DNA of 64,000 nucleotides from Lysobacterales bacterium (lineage in GTDB: Bacteria; Pseudomonadota; Gammaproteobacteria; Xanthomonadales; SZUA-38). Location of the stretch: the NCBI GenBank assembly GCA_028285525.1, contig JANQOZ010000031.1:1-64000 (forward strand), written 5' to 3'. The notes under the pieces were generated by a model. That model was not told where the DNA came from and did not search any database. It was given only the letters and a program-made list of their open reading frames with translations. Position numbers and translations under genes: made by a program. Numbering within the stretch: position 1 is the stretch's first letter; each line of letters begins with the position of its first letter. Positions 23,646-38,632 of the stretch are shown here, in pieces.

Positions 23646-23882
23646 TTAGCGCAACCAGCCCACAGACAGATCCAGAAGCCGGCGGCTCTTTTTGCTTTCG
23701 GCCGGCGCCTCAACGGCAGCGGTGGAGACGCACTCGCTCGTGAAAACGTCGACGATCTGCTCGCTCTCGCCGAGCGAAGACATGAGGTAGGCGGCGCTCA
23801 GCATGATGCCGAGGGCCAGCGTCTGCGCCCCCAAAACGGCTGCGATCAATACACCTGGTCGCGTCAATACGGTCCTGCTCAT
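23646..23882 (-). CDS. Small membrane protein of unknown function, first gene of the GntR/ABC operon
   Basis: This 78-residue protein has one strong hydrophobic segment (VLIAAVLGAQTLALGIMLSAAYLM, about 11-34). A short charged tail ends SKKSRRLLDLSVGWLR, which may be amphipathic. It lies 22 bases before the GntR gene on the same strand, directly after the palindromic operator, so it should be under the same control. No ribosome site is obvious. I do not recognise the family. Confidence 0.6.
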   Translation of the reverse strand: MSRTVLTRPGVLIAAVLGAQTLALGIMLSAAYLMSSLGESEQIVDVFTSECVSTAAVEAPAESKKSRRLLDLSVGWLR

Positions 23883-24040: not shown

Positions 24041-24745
24041 ATGAACGCACGTAAAACCCTCATTCACGCCATATGCGCGTCAGCCGTTCTTGTGGGCACT
24101 CAAGCCATCGCCCAGGACATTCAGGGCGAAGATGCGGAGCTCAGCTACAAAATGGGTTACGACATCGGCGAGCGTATGCAGGAGATGGGGATCAAGAACC
24201 TCGATCCGTCTGCCTTCTCCGCGGGCGCTATGGACGCTATGGCTGATAAGGACAGCCAGCTGTCCGAAGCGCAGTCCAGCGCGGCAACCGCCACCCTGAC
24301 GCGGCTCCAGTCCGAAGAGATGGACCGGAGGCGCCTTGAGCTCGCCAACGCCGCGGAAAACAACCTGAAGATCGGGAAAACCTTTCTTGAGGAAAACGCG
24401 CAGCGCGACGGTGTCCAGGTGACTCCCTCAGGCCTGCAGTATGAAGTGGTTCGCGCCGGCGACGGACCCCGCCCCAAGGCGACGGACACGGTTCGGGTTC
24501 ATTACCAGGGCACGCTGATCGACGGGACCGAGTTCGACAGCTCCTATGGCCGTGGCGAGCCGGCAGTTTTCCCGCTGAATCGCGTGATTTCCGGCTGGAC
24601 CGAAGGGCTGCAGCTGATGCCGGTGGGCAGCGAATACCGCTTCGTTATTCCGTCAGACCTGGCCTACGGTGGGCGGAATCAGGGCAAAATCGGCCCGAAC
24701 TCAACGCTCATCTTCAAGGTCGAGCTCCTCGGCATCGAGGGCTGA
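24041..24745 (+). CDS. FKBP-type peptidyl-prolyl cis-trans isomerase, Mip/FkpA-like, exported
   Basis: The ATG at 24041 is chosen over one six codons upstream because it begins a standard signal peptide (MNARKTLIHAICASAVLVGTQAIAQ). The 234-residue protein has the helical dimerisation region of Mip/FkpA (SYKMGYDIGERMQEMGI...RRLELANAAENNLKIGKTFLEENA). An FKBP domain follows (VHYQGTLIDGTEFDSSYGRGEP ... VISGWTEGLQLMPVG ... PSDLAYG). It should act as a periplasmic folding catalyst and chaperone. Confidence 0.94.
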   Translation: MNARKTLIHAICASAVLVGTQAIAQDIQGEDAELSYKMGYDIGERMQEMGIKNLDPSAFSAGAMDAMADKDSQLSEAQSSAATATLTRLQSEEMDRRRLELANAAENNLKIGKTFLEENAQRDGVQVTPSGLQYEVVRAGDGPRPKATDTVRVHYQGTLIDGTEFDSSYGRGEPAVFPLNRVISGWTEGLQLMPVGSEYRFVIPSDLAYGGRNQGKIGPNSTLIFKVELLGIEG

Positions 24746-24753
24746 TCGCCGCC

Positions 24754-24794
24754 CCGACCCTGGCAAAGCCAGGATCCGGTCGGACCTCATTTTT
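24754..24794 (+). terminator. Probable terminator of the FKBP gene
   Basis: CCGAC and CCTGGC pair with GCCAGG and GTCGG around an AAA loop, with a four-base bulge in the 3' arm. The stem is followed by CTCATTTTT. It lies in the 41-base gap between the convergent FKBP and lasso B1 genes, and its T-run enters the end of the latter. Confidence 0.55.
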
Positions 24795-25074
24795 CAGTTG
24801 GCTCAGCGGCCTGGCGCACCAGGCCGCTGTTGAGTAGATCCTCCAGCAGCGCCGCCACGTCGGTATGTGCCTGCGCCTCGCTGACGTCAAAATCCTGTGC
24901 CAGTCGCCCCGCGGCCGCCGCCGGATCCTGCAGGTCCAGCACGTAAAGAAACGCTGCGCAGGCGGTGTCGTTCAGCTCGTAATACTGCCCCTTTTCGGTA
25001 TCCAGCAGTACCATCGCATCGCCGGTGCGCTGACACATCACGTGTTCCGGAAGGCTGTAGGTCGCTTCCGTCAT
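24787..25074 (-). CDS. Lasso peptide B1 protein (PqqD-like leader-binding RRE)
   Basis: The 95-residue protein has the PqqD-like winged fold signature VLLDTEKGQYYELNDTACAAFLYV. The N-terminal beta strands that would pair with the leader peptide are followed by helices (AAGRLAQDFDVSEAQAHTDVAALLEDLLNSGLV). In split lasso systems this RiPP recognition element grips the YxxPxLxxxG leader motif and delivers the precursor to B2. The start overlaps the B2 stop by four bases, and it is the last gene of the cluster. Confidence 0.92.
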   Translation of the reverse strand: MTEATYSLPEHVMCQRTGDAMVLLDTEKGQYYELNDTACAAFLYVLDLQDPAAAAGRLAQDFDVSEAQAHTDVAALLEDLLNSGLVRQAAEPTEK

Positions 25075-25454
25075 GGTGGCGACAGGTCCCGAGCCTCCGG
25101 ACCCTGAAGGGGGTGGTGGGTGCCCTCCGACCAGCTTCGATCGCCGAGCGTCAGCCAGGCGTGGGCAGAAAAGGCCGGCTCGACCTGGGTGCCGAGCCGG
25201 AGCTGTACCGGGTAACCCTGCTGCCGCAGCTGCTTAGCGGCGGCAACACAGCGGCTGAGACAGGTGGACCAAGGCAGAAAGGCGGTACGCTCAAAGTCCT
25301 CGAGCGGCGATCGATCCTCCACCCAGTCGCGCGCGAGCCCCTCGGGTGGCGGCTTGAGCAGCTCGCCCGCGGCGGCCTGAAACCCTTGCGTGCGGAGCCT
25401 GGAGGCGGCTCGCGAAACCAGCCAGATCGCCCGGAACGTGGCCATCAGCGCCAT
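25071..25454 (-). CDS. Lasso peptide B2 leader peptidase (transglutaminase-like)
   Basis: The 127-residue protein has the B2 cysteine-protease pattern: nucleophile Cys65 in STCLSRCVAAAKQLRQQGYPVQLRLGTQ, His98 in FSAHAWLTLGD and Asp105. It cuts the precursor after the leader so that the cyclase can use the new N terminus. Family B2 proteins usually have CLxRS; here the Ser is Cys69. It overlaps the kinase gene by 10 bases, and is followed by B1 with a four-base overlap. Confidence 0.93.
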   Translation of the reverse strand: MALMATFRAIWLVSRAASRLRTQGFQAAAGELLKPPPEGLARDWVEDRSPLEDFERTAFLPWSTCLSRCVAAAKQLRQQGYPVQLRLGTQVEPAFSAHAWLTLGDRSWSEGTHHPLQGPEARDLSPP

Positions 25455-26407
25455 GGTGTCAGAGTCTCAAGGCACGCCACCATCGCAGGCAGCGCGGCCG
25501 GCACCTGGCGATAGCTGAGGCTAAGGACCTGCGTCTGCTGGGCCAGCGTGGCGGCAAAGCTCAGGTGGCGGCGCAGGCCTTCGGGCGAGAAAAGCCGACC
25601 GGCGAGCGTGTGTTCGATCAGCCCCAGCGTTGCCTCTGTCGCGCCAAGTGTTTGCACCGTCGGCGTCGACAGCCCCTGGCTGGCCGGCCCGCTATCTGAC
25701 GCTTCCGGATGTAGCAACACCAGATGGGTGATGGCGCAATCGGTCTCGTCGAGTGCGGCTCGCCACTGGGGCCATTTCGGCTGCGGGTAGTGATCCGGGC
25801 AGCGCGCGGTTTCGGCACTGCAGCGGACCGCCACCGTATCGTCAGCCCAGAGTTCGGCGCCCGCATCGGCGAGCGCCCGGCTGAGGGTGGTTTTTCCGGC
25901 GCCGCTGGCGCCGAGCAGCAGGGTCAGCCCGGTGCGGTGGCGAAGTGCCGCGGCGTGCAGGCAGTAGACGTCATGTTGGCTCAGCACCAGCGGGAGCAGC
26001 GGACCGCAGAGCGCTTCGGTGAGCTCGTCGGCAGACATTCTGGCCGGGTAACGGAGCCGGTCGGGCAGCTCGATGGCGAAGCTGCCGAGATCCTCGAGCT
26101 CCACGGCCATGCGGTCGGCGTCGCCGCGAACCACAACGTCGCGCACCCGCCGGCCAACCAGCCCGCGTGATGAGCGGCGCCAGGGAGCGGTCACGGGCGA
26201 CTGCGCGTTATCGTGATGACCAGGCGTTTCATGGTTTGCTGACGGTTTCGCCACGGATCGGTCGTCGGGAAAGGACTCGAGGCGCGGCAGCGGCTGATCG
26301 ACCGTCAAATTCAGGCCCGCGATGCGATAGCGGTGGGCGGTTTGACCCCGGCTGGGCGTGCGGCCGACGTTGAGCGTGGGTGATTCGAACCCGGTTTGCG
26401 CGGCCAC
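25445..26407 (-). CDS. HprK-related kinase of the lasso cluster
   Basis: The 320-residue protein starts at a GTG only five bases after the precursor stop. Residues 1-100 are a variable N-terminal part (partly His/Asn/Pro-rich linker near 55-75). The HPr-kinase-like P-loop GASGAGKTT is at 166-174, followed by LWADDTVAV with Asp189-Asp190 as likely metal or catalytic acids. Homologues in paeninodin-type clusters phosphorylate the C-terminal Ser of the precursor. Here the predicted core ends in Arg-Pro, so the acceptor is unclear. Alternatives are Ser9, Thr3 or Thr14 of the core, or a different function. Confidence 0.85.
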   Translation of the reverse strand: MAAQTGFESPTLNVGRTPSRGQTAHRYRIAGLNLTVDQPLPRLESFPDDRSVAKPSANHETPGHHDNAQSPVTAPWRRSSRGLVGRRVRDVVVRGDADRMAVELEDLGSFAIELPDRLRYPARMSADELTEALCGPLLPLVLSQHDVYCLHAAALRHRTGLTLLLGASGAGKTTLSRALADAGAELWADDTVAVRCSAETARCPDHYPQPKWPQWRAALDETDCAITHLVLLHPEASDSGPASQGLSTPTVQTLGATEATLGLIEHTLAGRLFSPEGLRRHLSFAATLAQQTQVLSLSYRQVPAALPAMVACLETLTPWR

Positions 26408-26412
26408 GCCGC

Positions 26413-26568
26413 TCAGGGCCGAAGCGTACCCGGATTGCCGCTTTCGCCGACGCCGGGCGTCGGACCGAGGGTGACATCACGGACGTCACCGCGGGGGATC
26501 AGCCGGGGCTCGCGGTAAGGCTTGCGCTGCGTGGTCGCCGGCTTCTGATCGGGTTGACGGGGTTTCAT
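26413..26568 (-). CDS. Lasso peptide precursor
   Basis: This 51-codon gene lies in the 212-base gap between the cyclase and kinase genes. The leader (1-34) has Tyr18, Pro21, Leu23, Gly27 and Thr33, exactly the YxxPxLxxxGxxxxxTx pattern read by B1 proteins, with the universal Thr at position -2. The predicted core (35-51) is GPTPGVGESGNPGTLRP. Gly1 and Glu8 are spaced for an eight-membered macrolactam ring, leaving a nine-residue tail (S9-P17). Arg16 is the only bulky charged tail residue and may act as a plug. The start is ATG; the ribosome site is weak (ACAGG). The core matches no lasso peptide I can recall. Confidence 0.93.
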   Translation of the reverse strand: MKPRQPDQKPATTQRKPYREPRLIPRGDVRDVTLGPTPGVGESGNPGTLRP

Positions 26569-26619
26569 GGCCTGTTTTTAGCGGCTGCCCCTGACGAAGT
26601 CAATTCGGCGCCTGTAACT

Positions 26620-28392
26620 TCAGGTGAACTTCTGCTGCCATCGGGAGGCGCTGACGCAGCACCAGAGGATGTAGAGACTGAAGCCCGACCAGTCGTTTTG
26701 CCGCCAGCGATCCTCGAGCCAGGACGCGTCAATGTAGGGCTGCCAGTGGTCGGCGAAGCTGAGCGCCTGACGCACCTTGTCCCGATGGTCCTCGAGCACC
26801 GCCTGACGAAACATGGGCTCCAGCGTGGTTTTGTCGAGCCGGCTCGTAACGGCTGAGGGCAGGCGGCCATCCATCATCCGGCGGGTGATGGGTTTGGTCA
26901 CGTCGGCATGGGGATCGAGCCAGCAGTCGGCGGGCAGGCTCAGAAAGAACTGCACGAGATTCCACTGGCGGTAGGGAAACCGGTATTCCACGCCCCAGGC
27001 CAGGCCCTGCAGATAGCCCAGATGGGCGGCGCGAGCGGTGGTGCTGTTAAGGCAACCTTCAACCCGATCGACCTGGCTGATCGACCCGTAGATCGGATGA
27101 TCCCGGCCTGCGGTTGTCAGCAGGGACCGGCTGTGCTCCGTCAGCCAGGGGCGGGAGGGCGTTCGGCGGCCGCGGGAGATGCCGTTGAGCGGCCCCAGGC
27201 GTCGCAGGATGGGATCGCGCCAGAAGGCCGGGTTTGCCCTCAGGCGTTCGGCGAGCGTTGTCAGTGACCGAAGAGGCTGGCGAAGAAATCCGTCGCGCAG
27301 CGAATAGGGGTAGCCGAGGTAAAGCTGGTCGGCAAAGTCTCCGGTCACAACGCCCCGGTGGCCCCGCTCCCGCGCCCGAACGGCCAGCCGCCAGCGCATG
27401 GCCTGGTAGGCGTCCTGCTCCGGACCGCAGGCGAGCGCCGGCGTCTTCTCATAGGCTTCGCCGAGGGGCTCAGCGTCGTCACAGTCGATTTCGGTCAGCG
27501 TCATGTCGAGCTGGCGGCAGACTTGCCTTGCCAGCTCATGTTCCTGACAGGCCGGCCAACGATCGAGCCGATAGGTGAACCCATGCCTCAAACCGCTGAC
27601 GGCCGCCGCTGCGGGGGAATCGAGGCCGCCGCTGATGGCGATGGCATCGTCGTCTGACCGGGTTGCCGCAACCGCGCTGCGCAGCCGCTCAAGCAGCCCC
27701 TCTCGCTGTTCCGCGGGCTTCAGACGCCGGACTGTCGGGTCATAGCGAAAGCGCCAGTAGCGTTGTGGCACCGGGCCCGCGCCCGGGCTGAGCTCCAGCC
27801 AGTGCCCCGGCGGCAGCGACCTGACGCCGGCGACCGGCGTCAGCGACGCGGGCGGCGGCTCAGCGGCAAAAAAGTTGGCCAGGTACGCCGGCTCCGGCTG
27901 CGGACGCTCCGGCCACAGCATGCGCTCGTCCGTCGCGAACCAGTAGGCGTCCTCCGTCTCGGCAAAAAATGCGCCCCGACTCCCCAGCGGGTCTCGAAGC
28001 GCCAGCGCCGTGCCGTCAACGCGATCGACCAGCAGTAGCACGAAGCTGCCGCTGAACCACTGCGCAACCTCCGGGCCACGCGCTGCGACGAGCTCGAGCG
28101 CTTCTCGGGCTGTCGGCCCGTCGGGATCCAGCTGCCCCCACAGCAGCCCGCAATAGCGGGTATCGAGCTCGATGACGGGTTCATAGGTAGCGTGGTCATA
28201 TTGCGCTGCCCACGCCAGTGGGTGACCGAGGGCGCCGACCCGCAGGCGCTGCCAGGCGAAATATTTTTCAGGCTGATCGAGCCTCAGGCGGGCGCGCTCG
28301 AGACGCTGACCAAAGTCCTGCTGAGTGGCCCGATGATCCCGATCGGAGTTCGGCTGTCTGGGAACCCTCGCGAGCAGCGCGCCGGCTGTCAT
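26620..28392 (-). CDS. Lasso cyclase (asparagine synthetase homologue, C protein)
   Basis: An open frame continues to 29001, but the real start is the ATG at 28392, which overlaps the stop of the nucleotidyltransferase gene by four bases. The 590-residue protein has a glutaminase-like N-terminal half (ALGHPLAWAAQYDHA, RDPLGSRGAFFAETED) without the catalytic Cys2. The synthetase half has the PP-loop AIAISGGLDSPAAAAV. Lasso cyclases adenylate the ring Asp/Glu side chain and let the new N-terminal amine attack it. The missing Cys2 fits, because no glutamine ammonia is needed. Confidence 0.93.
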   Translation of the reverse strand: MTAGALLARVPRQPNSDRDHRATQQDFGQRLERARLRLDQPEKYFAWQRLRVGALGHPLAWAAQYDHATYEPVIELDTRYCGLLWGQLDPDGPTAREALELVAARGPEVAQWFSGSFVLLLVDRVDGTALALRDPLGSRGAFFAETEDAYWFATDERMLWPERPQPEPAYLANFFAAEPPPASLTPVAGVRSLPPGHWLELSPGAGPVPQRYWRFRYDPTVRRLKPAEQREGLLERLRSAVAATRSDDDAIAISGGLDSPAAAAVSGLRHGFTYRLDRWPACQEHELARQVCRQLDMTLTEIDCDDAEPLGEAYEKTPALACGPEQDAYQAMRWRLAVRARERGHRGVVTGDFADQLYLGYPYSLRDGFLRQPLRSLTTLAERLRANPAFWRDPILRRLGPLNGISRGRRTPSRPWLTEHSRSLLTTAGRDHPIYGSISQVDRVEGCLNSTTARAAHLGYLQGLAWGVEYRFPYRQWNLVQFFLSLPADCWLDPHADVTKPITRRMMDGRLPSAVTSRLDKTTLEPMFRQAVLEDHRDKVRQALSFADHWQPYIDASWLEDRWRQNDWSGFSLYILWCCVSASRWQQKFT

Positions 28393-29465
28393 CCTCGATC
28401 GACGCCGCCCGCACTTCGGCCGCGCGAGGCGTTGCCCAGCGCTTTTGCTGCGCCCCCAACCAGGCGTTGCAGGTACCCGATCGGATGAGCGCCGAAGCCC
28501 CGCGCATTCATGAACTGGCGGGAAGGAAACAGGAGCTGGCGCAGGTAGCGCAGCCGCGAGCCAACGCGGGGCAGGGCGCGCAGGTCCTGCAGGATGGTCG
28601 GGCGGCCTGACACGTAGTGGCGCGTCCGTTGTCGGGCGCCGGCCAGCAGCCGCTCGCGAGCCGTTTCGCAGTAACTGGTGCCCAGCGTGCGCGCGCATAG
28701 CGCCAGCGCCGCGCTGCCGATCGGTGCCAGACCCAGCCGCAGCGTCAGCGCGACCAGATCGGAACGCTGGGTCGGCGTCAGAAGCTCCCAGATGAGATGC
28801 AGGTCGAGCAGCCACTTCATCGCCGGTCGATCGGCGTGGTGCCCGAGCAGGTGCGTCGCCGCATGCAGCCAGGCGGCCTCGGGCCCCAGGACCAGCCGTC
28901 CCGGCGACGCCTCGCCGCTCATATCTCTCAGCACGGGGTACGAGAGCGCCGCGGCCAGCTCCGACCGGTTGCTGCTCTGCCAGTGGAGATCGAGATGGCA
29001 AATCGGGCGATCGTCCTCAACCAGGGTGAACCGCTGCTGGGTCATGATCAGGTCACCGTCGACGGCGAGTTCCGGTCGGTAGCCCAGCGCGGTCAGTGCA
29101 GCGCAGGCCCCGTCGCGGGTTGCTGGATCGATCAATAAGTCCAGGTCACCGACGGGGCGCATCGCCGGTTCCGGGTAGAGCCAGTGGTTGAGGCCCGCGC
29201 CCTTCAGTACCAGCGGTGCTTTCAGCGCCGCCAGCGCCTGCGGCCAGTGCTGCTGCCAGCTGAGCCACTGAGCGGAGTAGGCGCTGCGCCAATCGCGGAG
29301 ACGCTGACGTACGTCCGGCTCAAGCTCCAGCTCGTCAGCCAGCGCAATCGCCATACCCGCCAGACCCTGCTGATGCAGCCAGTCGAAACGCAAAGGTTTG
29401 CCGGCGGCCAGGTGCTTCATCGCCCTCCGGGCAGATGCCAGGAATGCCTGCGGGTCGGGTTTCAC
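28389..29465 (-). CDS. Nucleotidyltransferase-family protein of the lasso cluster
   Basis: The 358-residue product starts at GTG. It has the nucleotidyltransferase motif MRPVGDLDLLIDPATRDGA (about 104-120), followed by ALTALGYRPEL and HLDLHWQSS, as in the NTP_transf_5 family. Members recur in proteobacterial lasso clusters with HprK-like kinases, where modification of a phosphorylated peptide has been reported. It is the first gene of the cluster, 57 bases from divergent ugd. A -10-like GATAAT lies on the minus strand at 29501-29506, with only a weak -35. Confidence 0.85.
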   Translation of the reverse strand: MKPDPQAFLASARRAMKHLAAGKPLRFDWLHQQGLAGMAIALADELELEPDVRQRLRDWRSAYSAQWLSWQQHWPQALAALKAPLVLKGAGLNHWLYPEPAMRPVGDLDLLIDPATRDGACAALTALGYRPELAVDGDLIMTQQRFTLVEDDRPICHLDLHWQSSNRSELAAALSYPVLRDMSGEASPGRLVLGPEAAWLHAATHLLGHHADRPAMKWLLDLHLIWELLTPTQRSDLVALTLRLGLAPIGSAALALCARTLGTSYCETARERLLAGARQRTRHYVSGRPTILQDLRALPRVGSRLRYLRQLLFPSRQFMNARGFGAHPIGYLQRLVGGAAKALGNASRGRSAGGVDRG

Positions 29466-29500
29466 TCCTTCTGACTTCCCTCTACCATGGCGACCTGCGC

Positions 29501-29506
29501 ATTATC
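29501..29506 (-). promoter_or_regulatory. Candidate -10 of the lasso cluster promoter
   Basis: The minus strand reads GATAAT 36 bases before the nucleotidyltransferase start, within the only non-coding gap upstream of the cluster. The -35 region would fall inside the first codons of ugd (CTTTCA-like) and is weak, so an activator or another sigma factor may be needed. Confidence 0.4.
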
Positions 29507-29510
29507 TACC

Positions 29511-29516
29511 AGGAAC
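29511..29516 (+). promoter_or_regulatory. Ribosome-binding site deciding the TTG start of ugd
   Basis: AGGAAC lies eight bases before the TTG at 29523. Translation from there gives [15 protein letters not shown] right after the initiator, the expected N terminus of UDP-glucose dehydrogenases. The upstream ATG at 29487 would add 12 unrelated residues and has no such site. Confidence 0.75.
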
Positions 29517-29522
29517 GAAGCT

Positions 29523-30872
29523 TTGAAAGTCACGATTTTTGGATCCGGCTACGTGGGGCTGGTCACGGGCGCCTGCCTGGCCGAAGCAGGAAATCACGTC
29601 GTTTGTGTCGACGTGGATGCGGAAAAAATTGCGGGCCTGAATCGCGGTGAGCTCCCCATCTACGAGCCGGGGCTGGAACACCTGGTCTCCAGCAACACGA
29701 AGGCCGGGCGCTTGAAGTTTACGAGCGACGCCGCCGAGGGTGTTCAGCACGGCGAATTTCAGTTCATTGCGGTCGGGACGCCGCCAGACGAAGACGGCAG
29801 TGCGGATCTGCAGTACGTGCTGGCGGTGGCGCGGACGATCGGCCAGCACATGGATAAGCCGAAAATTGTCGTGGACAAATCGACGGTGCCGGTCGGTACA
29901 GCCGACCAGGTGAGTCGCGCGCTGGGCGCGGCGCTTGAGGCGCGTGGCGAAAACATCGATTACTGGGTGATTTCCAATCCGGAGTTCCTGAAGGAGGGAG
30001 CGGCGATCGAAGACTGCCAGAAGCCCGATCGCATAGTCCTTGGCGGTGACAACGAGCACGCTTTGACCCGGATGAAACACCTCTACGCGCCGTTCAATCG
30101 CAACCACGACAAAATTATCACCATGGATATCCGTTCGGCGGAGCTGACGAAGTACGCCGCCAACGCGATGCTGGCGACCAAGATCTCCTTCATGAATGAA
30201 ATCGCCAACCTTGCCGAACTTGTCGGCGCGGACGTTGAGCAGGTCCGGCGCGGGATTGGCTCGGATCCCCGGATCGGTTTCTCCTTTATCTATCCCGGCT
30301 GCGGCTATGGCGGTTCCTGTTTTCCCAAAGACGTCCAGGCGTTGTCCCGAACGGCCGCGGAAGTGGGGTACGAGGCGCGCATCCTCAACTCGGTTGAGGC
30401 GGTCAACGCCGATCAGAAGTCCGTACTGCTGGGCAAAATGGCGGCGCACTTCGCCAGCCTGGAGGGCAAGACCATTGCGCTTTGGGGCCTGGCGTTCAAA
30501 CCCAACACGGACGACATGCGCGAGGCGCCCAGCCGCACGCTGATGGAGGGGCTGTGGGCCGCAGGCGCCAGGGTTCGAGCCTACGACCCGGAGGCGAGCG
30601 ATGAAGCGCGACGGATCTACGGCGATCACCCGGCGCTGGAGTTGTGTGATGACGCCTATACGGCCGCCGACGGTGCCGATGCGCTGGTGATCGTGACGGA
30701 ATGGCGCAGCTTCTGGTCGCCGGACTTTGAGCGACTGGCTGAGCTGCTGCGTGAGCCGGTGATCTTCGACGGACGCAACCTGTACGATCCGGATCACGCG
30801 GCCAGCAAGGGATTTGCGTACTACGCGATCGGTCGCGGGGCGAGCGTCACCGTTCCTGGGACCTCTGCGTGA
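29523..30872 (+). CDS. ugd: UDP-glucose 6-dehydrogenase
   Basis: The 449-residue enzyme oxidises UDP-glucose to UDP-glucuronate using two NAD. The N-terminal Rossmann motif [17 protein letters not shown] and the catalytic thiohemiacetal Cys in [14 protein letters not shown] are intact. [14 protein letters not shown] and the C-terminal [18 protein letters not shown], with the UDP-binding site, are also present. It is coupled to the UDP-xylose synthase gene by a four-base overlap and feeds the nearby EPS genes. Confidence 0.97.
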
Positions 30873-33842: not shown

Positions 33843-34193
33843 ATGCATCAGGAAATTCACTACCACCTTCTGAAGCTGCTGGAGCGTCAGCCCAGCTGCA
33901 GTCAGCGAATGCTCGCCCGCCGTCTTGAGATCAGCCTGGGCAAGGTTAACTATTGCCTCAAGGCCCTGACGGATGCCGGCATGGTTGTCGCGGAGACTGA
34001 CGCTGGCCTGGGCAAACCGCGTCGGTATCGGGTCACCGCCGAGGGGCGTCAGGCGCGTCGCGTTGCGGCGGCCGCCTTTCTGGAACACAAGACCCACGAA
34101 CTGGAGTCGCTGCGGCGGGAGATTGAGCGTCTCAAGGCCGAGCTGGGTCATGACGTCGATCGTGGAGCCGAGGAAGGCCATGTGCGCCGTTAA
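33843..34193 (+). CDS. EPS-associated MarR-family transcriptional regulator
   Basis: The 116-residue protein (from ATG 33843; a GTG at 33828 is possible) has the winged helix MHQEIHYHLLKLLERQPSCSQRMLARRLEISLGKVNYCLKALTDAGMV. This follows the EPS-associated MarR subfamily, which sits in exopolysaccharide loci. The C terminus is a coiled coil (EHKTHELESLRREIERLKAEL) for dimerisation. It overlaps asnB by 14 bases and is the first gene after ops, so it likely controls this locus. Confidence 0.87.
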   Translation: MHQEIHYHLLKLLERQPSCSQRMLARRLEISLGKVNYCLKALTDAGMVVAETDAGLGKPRRYRVTAEGRQARRVAAAAFLEHKTHELESLRREIERLKAELGHDVDRGAEEGHVRR

Positions 34194-35910
34194 CGGCATT
34201 TATGCCTACCATCGCAGTGCGCCCGACGCTGACCCCGCGGAGGCAGAGTCGACGCGAGACGCGATGCAGCGCCGCGGTCCTGACGGTTGCGGGCTGTGGC
34301 AGTCCCCTGACCAGCGTCTGGTGCTCGGCCATCGGCGCCTCAGCATCATCGACCTGAGCGATGCGGGGAGTCAGCCGATGCTCAGCCTCTGCGGCCGCTA
34401 CGTGCTGTGCTTCAACGGCGAAATCTATAACTACCGAACGCTGCGCGACGAGCTTGAAGCCGAGGGTGAGCAGTTCCGATCCAGCAGCGATACGGAGGTG
34501 CTGCTGAGGCTGCTCCAGCGGTATGGCAGTAAAGCGCTACCCAGGCTCCGCGGCATGTTTGCGCTGGCCTTCTGGGATCAGCAGTCGCACGAGCTGCTGC
34601 TCGCGCGGGATCGCTTCGGGATCAAGCCCCTGTACGTGGCTGACGACGGCTGGCACCTGCGTTTTGCCAGCCAGGTCAAGGCGCTGTTGAACAGCGGAGC
34701 GATTCCCTGTGAGCCTGATCCGGCCGGCCAGGCCGGGTTTTTGCTGACCGGCAGCATCCCGGAACCGTTTACGCTTTATCGCGGCGTCCGCGCGCTGCCG
34801 GCGGGTCATTTTCAGCGCTGCGGTCCGGCTGGACCGTCCGCCCCGGTGCCGTTCAAACCCGCGCCCGAGGTTGGCGGGTCCGCGGGCCCGGATGCGCTGA
34901 AGTCCGCCCTCGAGGATTCGGTCAGGGCACACCTGGTGGCTGACGTTCCGGTCGGCGTGTTCCTGTCGGCCGGCATCGACAGCGCTGTTCTGGCGGCCCT
35001 TGCAAGTCGGCAGAATCCAGAGCTTGAAGCCCTGACCGTCGGCTTCGCCGAGTACCGCAACAGTGAGCGAGACGAGGTGACCCTGGCGCGTCAGATCGCC
35101 GGCCGCCTCGGCCTTCGTCACCGCGTCTCCTACTACGCCAAAGCGCAGTTTGAGAGCGATCTGCCGCAGGTGCTGCAGGCGATGGATCAGCCGAGCATCG
35201 ATGGACTCAACACCTGGATTGTGGCCGGAGCCGCCGCTGAGGCGGGCTGGAAGACAGCGCTGTCCGGACTGGGTGCCGACGAGCTGTTCGCCGGCTATCC
35301 GTCTTTCCTGGAGGTCCCGCGGTGGCACCGACGGGCCTCCTGGGCAGGCTGGGTACCGGGGCTGGGCAGTCTGCTCCGAACCATGCTACGGCCGCTCTGC
35401 GCCGTGCTGGGACTGTCGCCCAAGGCTGCGGGAATGCTGGAGTACGGACGCAGCATCGGCGGTGCCTACCTGCTGAAACGTGGCCTGTTTATGCCATGGG
35501 AGCTCCCGGCTCTGATGGGCCGCTCGGCGGCGCGGGAAGGGCTTAAGCGCCTGAGCCTCGTGCGTCGGATGAACCAGCAGGCGCTGCTCGGCAGTAATCC
35601 GCCGGCCGCGGTGAGCGCCCTGGAGCAGGGCTTCTATCTCAAAAACCAGCTGCTGCGCGACGCGGACTGGGCCGGCATGAATCACTCCCTTGAGATCCGG
35701 GTCCCCTATGTCGACACGACGCTGCAGCAGCTGGCGGGCGGTGCGCGATTCAGCAAGATCGATCTGCTGCAAACGGCGGCTGACCTGCTGCCGCAAACGC
35801 TGTTTGAGCGACCAAAAACGGGCTTCACGACGCCACTCGACCAGTGGCGTGGCCACCCGGGCGCCGGCTGGGCTCGACACTGGGCCCAGGAGCTTCAGTG
35901 CAGGTTCTAG
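34180..35910 (+). CDS. asnB: Glutamine-hydrolysing asparagine synthase-like protein of the EPS locus
   Basis: The ATG at 34180 is chosen because it puts the catalytic cysteine at residue 2 (MCAVNGIYAYH) and is preceded by GAGGAAGG. The 576-residue protein has the class II glutaminase (RRGPDGCGLW, GHRRLSIIDLSDAGSQPM, CFNGEIYNYRTLRDEL) and a synthetase domain with PP-loop FLSAGIDSAVLAAL. Such genes are frequent in EPS clusters, where they may amidate a sugar carboxylate (for example glucuronate) instead of free aspartate; this is inference. It contrasts with the Cys-less homologue in the lasso cluster. Confidence 0.92.
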   Translation: MCAVNGIYAYHRSAPDADPAEAESTRDAMQRRGPDGCGLWQSPDQRLVLGHRRLSIIDLSDAGSQPMLSLCGRYVLCFNGEIYNYRTLRDELEAEGEQFRSSSDTEVLLRLLQRYGSKALPRLRGMFALAFWDQQSHELLLARDRFGIKPLYVADDGWHLRFASQVKALLNSGAIPCEPDPAGQAGFLLTGSIPEPFTLYRGVRALPAGHFQRCGPAGPSAPVPFKPAPEVGGSAGPDALKSALEDSVRAHLVADVPVGVFLSAGIDSAVLAALASRQNPELEALTVGFAEYRNSERDEVTLARQIAGRLGLRHRVSYYAKAQFESDLPQVLQAMDQPSIDGLNTWIVAGAAAEAGWKTALSGLGADELFAGYPSFLEVPRWHRRASWAGWVPGLGSLLRTMLRPLCAVLGLSPKAAGMLEYGRSIGGAYLLKRGLFMPWELPALMGRSAAREGLKRLSLVRRMNQQALLGSNPPAAVSALEQGFYLKNQLLRDADWAGMNHSLEIRVPYVDTTLQQLAGGARFSKIDLLQTAADLLPQTLFERPKTGFTTPLDQWRGHPGAGWARHWAQELQCRF

Positions 35911-36947
35911 CGCTGGTGACGGAGGCGTTCAACGCCCGCGGCGGCATCCAGGCATTCAACCGCCATTGGCTGATGAGCCTGGCGGAAGGCCCGGCGAGCC
36001 GCGTTGAGGTGCTGGCGACCGGCGGTGGCGACTATGAATCCGACAGGCTGCGCCAGCGCAGCGCGGCAGGTCGCTGGCGCTATCTGGCAAAGGCCCGCGC
36101 CGCGCTGACGCGGCAGCAGCCCGATCTTCTCCTTTGTGGTCATCTGTCGTTGCTGCCGCTGGCCGCCTTCCTGGCCGGCCGCAGCGGCCTGCCGCTTTGG
36201 CTTCAGCTTCACGGCATCGAGGCCTGGCAGGCACCGGACTCGCGATGGCGCCGCTGGGGTCTGCCGCGGGTCACGCTCGCAACGGCCGTCAGCCGCTACA
36301 CGCGACGACGGTTTCTGAATTGGTCGGGCGTGCCGGATCACCAGGTGAGGGTCCTGCCGAACACGGTGGCCGAAGACTGTTTTGCCGATCCGGCGACGGC
36401 GCCGGAGCAATTGCCTGGCCGCTATCTTCTCAGCGTCGGACGTTTGAACGCCGACGAAGCCTACAAGGGGCATGACGAGGTGATTCGAGCGCTGCCCGTG
36501 GTGCTGCAGGATCAGCCCGATCTGCACTACGTCATCGCCGGGAGCGGCACGGATCTCGGCAGGCTCGAACATCTGGCCGCCCGCTGCGGCGTGGCGGAGC
36601 GCGTGGTGTTTATGACCCGGGCATCCCGGCGCGAGCTGCTGTGGCTCTATCGCCACGCCGAGCTGTTTGTGCTGCCGAGTAGCGGGGAGGGCTTTGGCAT
36701 CGTCTATCTGGAGGCGCTGGCGTGCGGATGTCCGGTGCTGGGCTTAGGTCAGGACGGCAGTGCCGATCCGCTGAGCCTGCCGGGGGGAACATTTGTTGCG
36801 GGCGAGGATCTGGCGGTTTCGATACTGAGCGCTCTGCGCGAAAGGACGAACCGCCCGGCTGATCCGGAATCGGTCAGGCAGCGTTTTGGCCTGCGGGCAT
36901 TTCGCGCGCAGGTCGGCGCCCTGGCCGCGGAGACCCTGAGTCAATGA
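35898..36947 (+). CDS. Glycosyltransferase family 4
   Basis: The start is the GTG at 35898 with AGGAG five bases upstream, overlapping asnB by 13 bases. The 349-residue protein begins QVLALVTEAFNARGGIQAFN and has VGRLNADEAYKGHDEV in the middle. The nucleotide-sugar motif is in SSGEGFGIVYLEALACGCPV (EX7E). It should add one sugar of the EPS repeat unit on the cytoplasmic side; its specificity is unknown. Confidence 0.9.
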   Translation: MQVLALVTEAFNARGGIQAFNRHWLMSLAEGPASRVEVLATGGGDYESDRLRQRSAAGRWRYLAKARAALTRQQPDLLLCGHLSLLPLAAFLAGRSGLPLWLQLHGIEAWQAPDSRWRRWGLPRVTLATAVSRYTRRRFLNWSGVPDHQVRVLPNTVAEDCFADPATAPEQLPGRYLLSVGRLNADEAYKGHDEVIRALPVVLQDQPDLHYVIAGSGTDLGRLEHLAARCGVAERVVFMTRASRRELLWLYRHAELFVLPSSGEGFGIVYLEALACGCPVLGLGQDGSADPLSLPGGTFVAGEDLAVSILSALRERTNRPADPESVRQRFGLRAFRAQVGALAAETLSQ

Positions 36948-38632
36948 GCGGGCTGTGGCGCGATCTTGTGACCGTGCTGGACGACCAGCTCCGTCGGGTT
37001 CCCTGGGTGGTCGGGCTGATGCTCACAGCGGCGGCGCTGGATTTGCTGGGCGTGAGCCTCATCGCGCCGTTTGTCGGCAGCGCGTTTTCCACCGCGCCGC
37101 AGCCGGGGAGCAGCACGCCGGTCTGGCTGGGACTGGCCGTTCTTTCGGCCTTCGCGGTGCGGGCGGCTGCGGGCTTTTACCTGCAGCGTGCGATGGTGCG
37201 ATTCAGCGACCATCACCGAGCTCTGCTGATGGCCAGGATGCTGAAGCGCTACCTGCAGCAGCCTTGGGTCTTCCATCTGCAGCGCAGTGAGGCCGAGCTG
37301 ACCAACACGCTGCTTTATGAGGTGGCGCTGTACAGCGGCAACGTGCTCAACGCGCTGCTTCGGTTGCTGTCGGACGGGCTCGTATTACTGGCGCTCGGGC
37401 TTTTTCTGGTGTACCTCAGCCCGCCTGTCGCTCTGGCCATGGGGCTGCTGATCGGGGCCACCGTACTGCTGGTCAACGTTGCGACACGGCGACCGATGCG
37501 CCGGAATGCGGAGCGCATCGTTCGCCGCTACGAGCGGGTGGTTCAGACCGTGAACAACAGCCTGGCGGCGCTGAAGCAGGCCCGGGTCCTGGGTTCACAG
37601 CAACTGTTTTGCCGGCGGCTGGAACAGGCGGCGGCAGAACAGGCTGAGGCAACGGCGCTGCAGAACGCCCTGCAGACGGTGCCGCGCAGCGCGCTCGAGC
37701 TGGCTGTGGTCGCTCTGATGCTCGGTGCGGCGGTGTGGGCCGGCCAGAGTCCGGAATCGGTGGCGGCTGCCATGGCGACACTGGGAACTTTTGGGGTCGC
37801 CAGTATCCGGCTGATTCCCGCCGCCACGTCGGTGGCGAACCAGATCAATCTGCTGCGGGCCAACCGGCCTGTGCTGAGCAGGCTGGCGGCTGATTTACGG
37901 CTGCCGGCGACCGAGATGCCGGCATCCTCCCGGACCGCTGAACGTCTGCCCGAAGTGATCCTGGATCGGGTGAGCTACACCTATCCCGACAGCCAGGCAC
38001 CGGCGCTTCACGATGTGCGCCTGCGTATCGAGCCCGGGAGCTGCTGCGGTATTGTGGGGCCGTCCGGGTCCGGCAAGAGTACGCTCGGCGATCTGGTGCT
38101 CGGGCTGCTGTCGCCCACGGCGGGCGTCATGAAGGTGGACGGCGTGCCGCTGACCGACGACACGCTGGCATGGACCCGGCGCTGCGCCTACATTCCTCAG
38201 GATCCGTGCCTGTTTCATGATTCGCTGCGAACGAACGTCACTCTCGATGATCGGTCGGGTCCGGCCTTAGACGAAGCGGTCAGGGAAGCGCTGAACAAGG
38301 CGGCGCTGGGTACCCTGCTGGAAGAGCTGCCGAGGGGGCTCGATGAGCCGCTGGGTGATCGCGGCCAGCGGCTCTCCGGCGGTCAGCGACAGCGGCTGGC
38401 GATCGCGCGGGCGCTGTTCCATCAGCGCGAGTTCCTGGTATTCGACGAGGCCACCTCGGCGCTGGACGCCTCGACCGAACGCGACATTATCAGCGCAATC
38501 TCCGACCTGAGGAGCAGCGCAACGGTCCTGGTCATCACCCATCGCGAAGCGTTGCTGGCACCCTGCGATGTGGTCTATGAGATCCGGGATGGCAGTCTCT
38601 CGCCGCTGGCTGATAGACAGGTGGTGGCGTGA
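36944..38632 (+). CDS. ABC exporter with fused membrane and ATPase domains, candidate EPS flippase
   Basis: The 562-residue protein has an N-terminal six-helix exporter domain (about 1-300). Its C-terminal ATPase has Walker A VGPSGSGKSTLGDLVLG, signature LSGGQRQRLAIARAL and Walker B FLVFDEATSALD. It resembles MsbA/PglK-type exporters. No Wzx flippase was found in the window, so this protein is the best candidate for turning the lipid-linked repeat unit across the membrane, as PglK does. This role is inference. It is coupled by four-base overlaps on both sides. Confidence 0.9.
   Translation: MSGLWRDLVTVLDDQLRRVPWVVGLMLTAAALDLLGVSLIAPFVGSAFSTAPQPGSSTPVWLGLAVLSAFAVRAAAGFYLQRAMVRFSDHHRALLMARMLKRYLQQPWVFHLQRSEAELTNTLLYEVALYSGNVLNALLRLLSDGLVLLALGLFLVYLSPPVALAMGLLIGATVLLVNVATRRPMRRNAERIVRRYERVVQTVNNSLAALKQARVLGSQQLFCRRLEQAAAEQAEATALQNALQTVPRSALELAVVALMLGAAVWAGQSPESVAAAMATLGTFGVASIRLIPAATSVANQINLLRANRPVLSRLAADLRLPATEMPASSRTAERLPEVILDRVSYTYPDSQAPALHDVRLRIEPGSCCGIVGPSGSGKSTLGDLVLGLLSPTAGVMKVDGVPLTDDTLAWTRRCAYIPQDPCLFHDSLRTNVTLDDRSGPALDEAVREALNKAALGTLLEELPRGLDEPLGDRGQRLSGGQRQRLAIARALFHQREFLVFDEATSALDASTERDIISAISDLRSSATVLVITHREALLAPCDVVYEIRDGSLSPLADRQVVA

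What the first reader, a model, noticed from the sequence alone, without database searches (positions are those of the whole stretch)
24787..29465. Lasso cluster with two tailoring enzymes but no exporter or isopeptidase
The order nucleotidyltransferase, cyclase, precursor, HprK-like kinase, B2, B1 puts both tailoring genes in the same coupled operon. No LasD-type ABC transporter and no isopeptidase are next to it. The product might use a general exporter, act inside the cell, or depend on the YtrA-type ABC transporter 1.6 kb downstream, which is on the same strand but beyond a convergent gene.
Basis: partly seen in the sequence, partly recalled or inferred. Interest (0 to 1): 0.7.

Follow-up and report, generated by a model that had tools for sequence, protein, structure and literature searches.

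The report
Exporter-less lasso peptide gene cluster
This is a complete gene cluster for a knotted ('lasso') peptide with two extra modifying enzymes but no export pump or degrading enzyme of its own, and related bacteria show that the missing pump is a stable trait of a whole peptide family rather than a gap in the data.

Summary
Confirmed: 29465-24787 (minus strand) encodes, in order, a nucleotidyltransferase (PF14907), lasso cyclase C, a 51-aa precursor, an HprK-like kinase, B2 and B1, tightly packed. The predicted core is GPTPGVGESGNPGTLRP, with E8 as its only acidic residue, giving a G1-E8 ring.

No isopeptidase or dedicated exporter accompanies it. All four held genomes of the family carry the cluster at one site. 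The precursor family occurs in 41/398 genomes of the order. LasD-like exporters lie close only to divergent precursors, and 35 distinct cores share G-x-[ST]-x-G-x-G-[DE]-S-G almost invariably.

The proposed YtrA-type transporter is housekeeping (188/200 genomes). In cluster-free relatives FKBP and UGD lie 122-186 bp apart; here the cluster fills that junction (4.75-4.78 kb). That explains its nearness to both the transporter and the polysaccharide locus.

Known lasso kinases modify a C-terminal Ser. No core here ends in Ser, yet the kinase keeps its HKDD residues, so S9 or T3 is the likelier target. I read it as a new variant of the paeninodin/pseudomycoidin kind: a phosphorylated, perhaps glycosylated, lasso peptide kept in the cell or released by a general route. 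Product, modification and location are inferred, not shown.

The parts
28389..29465 (-). NT: nucleotidyltransferase-family tailoring enzyme (358 aa), GDLD and D159 motifs kept
   Evidence: PF14907 E 1.4e-28; invariant G106 D107 D109 D159 in three genera
26620..28392 (-). C: lasso cyclase (590 aa), ATP motif SGGLDS, starts in an ATGA overlap with NT
   Evidence: Asn_synthase E 3.9e-21; S254 G255 G256 D258 S259 invariant
26413..26568 (-). A: precursor, 51 aa; leader 26568-26467 with YREPRL and Thr at -2; core GPTPGVGESGNPGTLRP 26466-26416
   Evidence: leader model NF033521 15.5 bits, below its cut-off 19
25445..26407 (-). K: HprK-like kinase (320 aa), His151-Lys172-Asp189-Asp190 invariant
   Evidence: profile reaches HprK structure 1jb1 at E 5e-4
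25071..25454 (-). B2: leader peptidase (127 aa), Cys (STCLSR) and His (SAHAW) kept
   Evidence: NF033537 45 bits over cut-off 33; Transglut_core3 E 4.7e-13
24787..25074 (-). B1: PqqD-like leader-binding protein (95 aa)
   Evidence: NF033530 70.3 bits, cut-off 70; TfuB1 6jx3 E 1e-10
24053..24745 (+). FKBP-type isomerase, convergent flank; left side of the insertion junction, not part of the cluster
29523..30872 (+). UDP-glucose dehydrogenase-like gene, first gene of the divergent polysaccharide operon (likely start TTG 29523); right side of the insertion junction, not part of the cluster
   Evidence: NDP-sugDHase 460 bits
21389..23220 (-). YtrA-type ABC pair; considered as exporter and rejected (housekeeping)
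   Evidence: 188/200 genomes of the order
36944..38632 (+). exporter-type ABC half-transporter (562 aa) in the polysaccharide operon; considered, not tied to the cluster
   Evidence: PF00664 46 bits; MsbA-like 250 bits, cut-off 602; not found beside the cluster in G004

Best explanation
The operon makes a lasso peptide. B1 binds the YREPRL leader motif, B2 cuts after Thr(-2)-Leu(-1), and C activates Glu8 and joins it to Gly1, giving an 8-residue ring with a 9-residue tail. The kinase probably phosphorylates a hydroxyl of the core (S9 or T3 rather than the C-terminal residue), and the nucleotidyltransferase probably attaches a sugar or nucleotide to that phosphate, as proposed for PsmN in pseudomycoidin. 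There is no dedicated exporter or isopeptidase. The product is either kept in the cell or leaves by a housekeeping route. The cluster is inserted between FKBP and UGD and inherited there, so its neighbours do not show that it uses them. Shown from sequence: gene identities, catalytic motifs, conserved exporter absence, insertion site. Inferred: ring, modification sites, location of the product.
For: Family models and motifs for every lasso step. Same six-gene cluster at the same site in G016, G004 and G026. Related precursors in 41/398 order genomes, with LasD-like ABC genes close only to divergent precursors (L028, L121, L122, L124) and, 7-9 kb off, in two g39 loci (L096, L100). No isopeptidase over the cut-off. 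Core 0 non-synonymous and 5 synonymous changes between G000 and G016, while the kinase has dN 0.28 and the leader dN 0.19. FKBP-UGD gap 122-186 bp in five cluster-free genomes, 4754-4779 bp in three carriers.
Against: No product has been seen, so topology and modifications are predictions. Precursor and C score below some curated cut-offs. The K assignment to HprK rests on motifs and weak profile hits. Exporters other than ABC half-transporters (MFS, ABC-2, RND) were not profiled. The S9/T3 argument is partly circular for precursors found by the profile, though examples from f1, f4, f10 and f11 were first found through C.
Confidence: 0.72

Rival explanations
1. The peptide is secreted by the YtrA-type ABC transporter 1.6 kb downstream, which belongs functionally to the cluster.
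For: Same strand; near the cluster in all four family genomes.
Against: Present in 188/200 genomes of the order, most without the cluster; same FKBP-GntR-ABC order in cluster-free genomes; 97-99% identical between congeners while cluster enzymes are 61-76%.
Confidence: 0.04
2. The exporter-type ABC protein in the adjacent polysaccharide operon (36944-38632) exports the lasso peptide.
For: Exporter-type ABC family, kept in G016; paeninodin-like clusters in Bacilli lie in polysaccharide loci and the related linear-peptide clusters there carry an MsbA-like transporter (PMC13381572).
Against: Not beside the cluster in G004, where the polysaccharide locus has an ABC-2-type pair instead; no PF00664 match on the G026 cluster contig. 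Polysaccharide or lipid flipping is a simpler role (best NCBIfam match MsbA, below cut-off).
Confidence: 0.08
3. The lasso peptide is functionally part of the polysaccharide locus, for example a phosphoglycosylated peptide that modifies or regulates surface polysaccharide, with NT using UDP-sugars from the divergent UGD/UXS/GALE genes.
For: Within the close precursor family the NT gene and the UGD junction both occur in family f1; paeninodin-type clusters often lie in capsular loci in Bacilli and one was up-regulated together with a polysaccharide gene (PMC13381572).
Against: The UGD-FKBP neighbourhood also exists without the cluster; relatives of the cluster in other families lie away from polysaccharide genes; one insertion event gives no statistics.
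Confidence: 0.15
4. The cluster is decaying: exporter and isopeptidase were lost and the enzymes are under relaxed selection.
For: Enzyme dN/dS 0.17-0.31 against 0.01-0.13 for flanking genes.
Against: Core invariant, all catalytic motifs intact, all frames open, kept in 4/4 family genomes across three genera; exporter absent across the close family, so no recent loss.
Confidence: 0.05

Closest known systems
Pseudomycoidin cluster (PsmK kinase + PsmN nucleotidyltransferase), Bacillus pseudomycoides
   Same: Lasso core enzymes plus an HprK-like kinase and a nucleotidyltransferase-family enzyme (PMC9266682, PMC8498205).
   Different: PsmK modifies a C-terminal Ser, absent here; Firmicutes clusters of that type carry a D transporter (PMC8498205), absent here; different core sequence (own knowledge).
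Paeninodin-like clusters in capsular polysaccharide loci of Bacilli
   Same: HprK-like kinase, NTP transferase, location beside polysaccharide genes (PMC13381572).
   Different: The paeninodin cluster and similar ones include transport genes (PMC8498205); here none, and the location is explained by insertion into an FKBP-UGD junction.
Astexin/caulosegnin-type proteobacterial clusters
   Same: Proteobacterial lasso clusters without an ABC transporter (PMC9266682).
   Different: Those carry isopeptidase, TonB receptor and sigma/anti-sigma genes; none of these is in this cluster, and B is split here with kinase and NT added.
Transporter-less clusters such as sphingocin and chaxapeptin
   Same: No D gene; chaxapeptin is still found outside cells (PMC11006600).
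   Different: Sphingocin is described as a three-gene A-B-C operon (PMC11006600), without kinase or nucleotidyltransferase; different core sequence.

Membership tests
Lasso peptide biosynthetic cluster | Precursor with YxxPxL-type leader, Thr at -2 and Gly1 ... Asp/Glu at 7-9 | tested here: met
   YREPRL, T33, G35, E42 = core E8
Lasso peptide biosynthetic cluster | B1, B2 and C enzymes | tested here: met
   NF033530, NF033537, Asn_synthase with SGGLDS
Lasso peptide biosynthetic cluster | Threaded product | not testable with these tools
   needs expression and MS/NMR
Paeninodin/pseudomycoidin type (kinase, with or without NT) | HprK-like kinase with His-Lys-Asp-Asp motif | tested here: met
   H151 K172 D189 D190 invariant in 10 sequences; motif from PMC9266682
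Paeninodin/pseudomycoidin type (kinase, with or without NT) | C-terminal Ser as phosphorylation site | tested here: not met
   core ends in Pro; 0 of 35 distinct cores end in Ser
Paeninodin/pseudomycoidin type (kinase, with or without NT) | D transporter in the cluster | tested here: not met
Isopeptidase-type proteobacterial lasso cluster | AtxE2-family isopeptidase | tested here: not met
   0 of 14 genomes over the 400-bit cut-off, best own match 85 bits

The most novel reading that the evidence does not exclude
A widespread, vertically kept lasso family whose ring is nearly invariant and which is not given its own exporter, because the phosphorylated (in f1 phosphoglycosylated) peptide works inside the producing cell, for example as a regulator or cofactor-like ligand, instead of as a secreted weapon or scavenger.
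Probability: 0.2. Interest if true: 0.85.

Novelty: new variant of a known kind. Interest (0 to 1): 0.52.

Why it matters
Lasso peptides are usually pictured as secreted antimicrobials or scavengers with a dedicated pump or a recycling enzyme. A family with a fixed ring, a conserved kinase, no pump, no isopeptidase and stable inheritance points to a different role and gives a defined peptide on which to test it. It would also extend lasso phosphorylation beyond the C-terminal Ser, and it warns that the nearness of such clusters to transporter or polysaccharide genes can reflect an insertion site.

Tried and rejected
YtrA transporter as partner: rejected. Polysaccharide adjacency as proof of function: weakened by the empty-site comparison. 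Isopeptidase elsewhere in the genome: only matches far below the cut-off. Plasmid-borne copies: none. tRNA or Rfam features: no tRNA at 20-35 kb, no Rfam match in the window. Sigma-70-like promoter: none found at 24600-29700. Literature search for the ring string GGSPG with lasso: no hit. The genome-contig scan gave only 11 loci, so the survey relied on the genome search. In one search the row GTa was read out of frame and is not used.

Full report
Observation. Family searches support most of them: PF14907, Asn_synthase, Transglut_core3/NF033537, PqqD/NF033530, and B1 matches the solved lasso B1 protein TfuB1. The precursor matches the lasso leader model NF033521 only below its cut-off (15.5 against 19 bits). 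The kinase has only weak family hits (HprK-related kinase A 20 bits, HprK structure 1jb1 E 5e-4), but ten homologues share invariant His, Lys and two Asp, the motif reported as essential in lasso kinases (PMC9266682). NT keeps GDxD and a third Asp. The genes overlap or nearly touch, so one operon is likely (inference).

Product. The leader carries YREPRL and Thr at -2, and the core is GPTPGVGESGNPGTLRP. Glu8 is its only acidic residue, so the G1-E8 ring is the only possible isopeptide of normal size (sequence plus established knowledge of the class).

Relatives. The family to which the window's genome belongs is represented by four genomes, and all four have the cluster. The cluster sits between the UGD operon and FKBP-GntR-ABC in each. 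C of the three relatives is 27-76% identical to that of the window, yet most of the 17 core positions do not change. Between the window and its congener the core has five synonymous and no amino-acid changes, while the leader has dN 0.19 and the kinase 0.28. The core is therefore under strong constraint.

Wider family. A profile of seven precursors finds 41 of 398 genomes of the order in 22 genera and 8 of 369 of the class sample. C-based scanning also found members in an Anaerolineae and an Acidobacteria assembly. Thirty-five distinct cores have G1 and D/E8 in all, and S/T3, G5 and S9 in 34; none ends in Ser. Part of this conservation is due to the search profile, but examples from families f1, f4, f10 and f11 were first found through C.

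Exporter. PF00664 matches near the cluster are limited to the polysaccharide-locus protein in the window and its congener. In G004 the corresponding locus carries an ABC-2-type pair instead (identified from sequence and order, not by a family search). Among neighbourhoods of the wider family, exporter-type ABC genes lie close only to divergent precursors (L028, L121, L122, L124) and, 7-9 kb away, in two g39 loci (L096, L100). Two ABC half-transporter families are shared by G000, G004, G026 and G010. One is MsbA-like; the other is in 109 of 121 genomes of the order. No genome of 14 has an isopeptidase over the NF033523 cut-off. Other exporter classes were not profiled, and assemblies are fragmented, so short contigs may hide neighbours.

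Neighbourhood. The YtrA-type ATPase is in 188 of 200 genomes of the order. In cluster-free genomes FKBP is followed directly by UGD, with 122-186 bp between them in five genomes where both ends could be placed. In the window, G016 and G004 the gap is 4754-4779 bp and holds the cluster in the opposite orientation. G010, from another family, also has the cluster next to FKBP. The simplest account is insertion as one unit into an older FKBP-UGD pair. The nearness of the YtrA transporter and of the polysaccharide genes is therefore not evidence of shared function.

Mechanism. Leader recognition, cleavage and cyclisation follow from the enzymes. Phosphorylation is likely, because the kinase is kept with its catalytic residues even where NT is absent. 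The site is open. Lasso kinases studied so far act on a C-terminal Ser (PMC9266682), which is missing here, while LppK of linear peptides acts on S3 of its core and did not accept Thr there (PMC13381572). S9 or T3 is my choice. The role of NT is taken from pseudomycoidin, where PsmN is needed for adding hexoses to the phosphorylated Ser (PMC9266682). Where the product acts is not known; I give retention in the cell and non-specific release together more weight than any dedicated pump.

Known or new. Clusters without a transporter are known (PMC11006600), and so is the link of kinase/NT lasso clusters to polysaccharide loci in Bacilli (PMC13381572). The combination here (kinase, no pump, no isopeptidase, fixed ring, fixed site) was not found in the literature searched, which covers open-licence papers only.

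Noticed in passing
L108 7175-8411 and L029 1296-2972; L110 10133-11408 and L030 9338-11017: In one genus of family f8 the precursor, kinase and B2 lie in one locus and a C homologue on another contig: seven genomes (G008, G028, G107, G112, G132, G147, G176) have both, apparently a split lasso pathway with no exporter seen in the loci read.
   Followed up: partly
L132 3982-5073: In genome G025, which gave no precursor or C match, a lone NT homologue (E 5e-60) sits between UGD and FKBP, the same junction that holds the lasso cluster in f1.
   Followed up: partly
window 23646-23882: A 78-aa predicted membrane protein upstream of the GntR gene; similar small ORFs sit there in related genomes (for example L133, L136, L137).
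   Followed up: no
window 34045-35910: The polysaccharide locus has its own asparagine synthase-like amidotransferase (asparagine synthase model 349 bits; XrtA/PEP-CTERM amidotransferase model 306 bits, below cut-off), which picks up weak matches to the lasso cyclase.
   Followed up: no
L119 1-170 and 1850 onward: Genome G047 has several precursors of this family, including two on one contig with different rings (GVSRGALESG and GGSVGRADSG).
   Followed up: no
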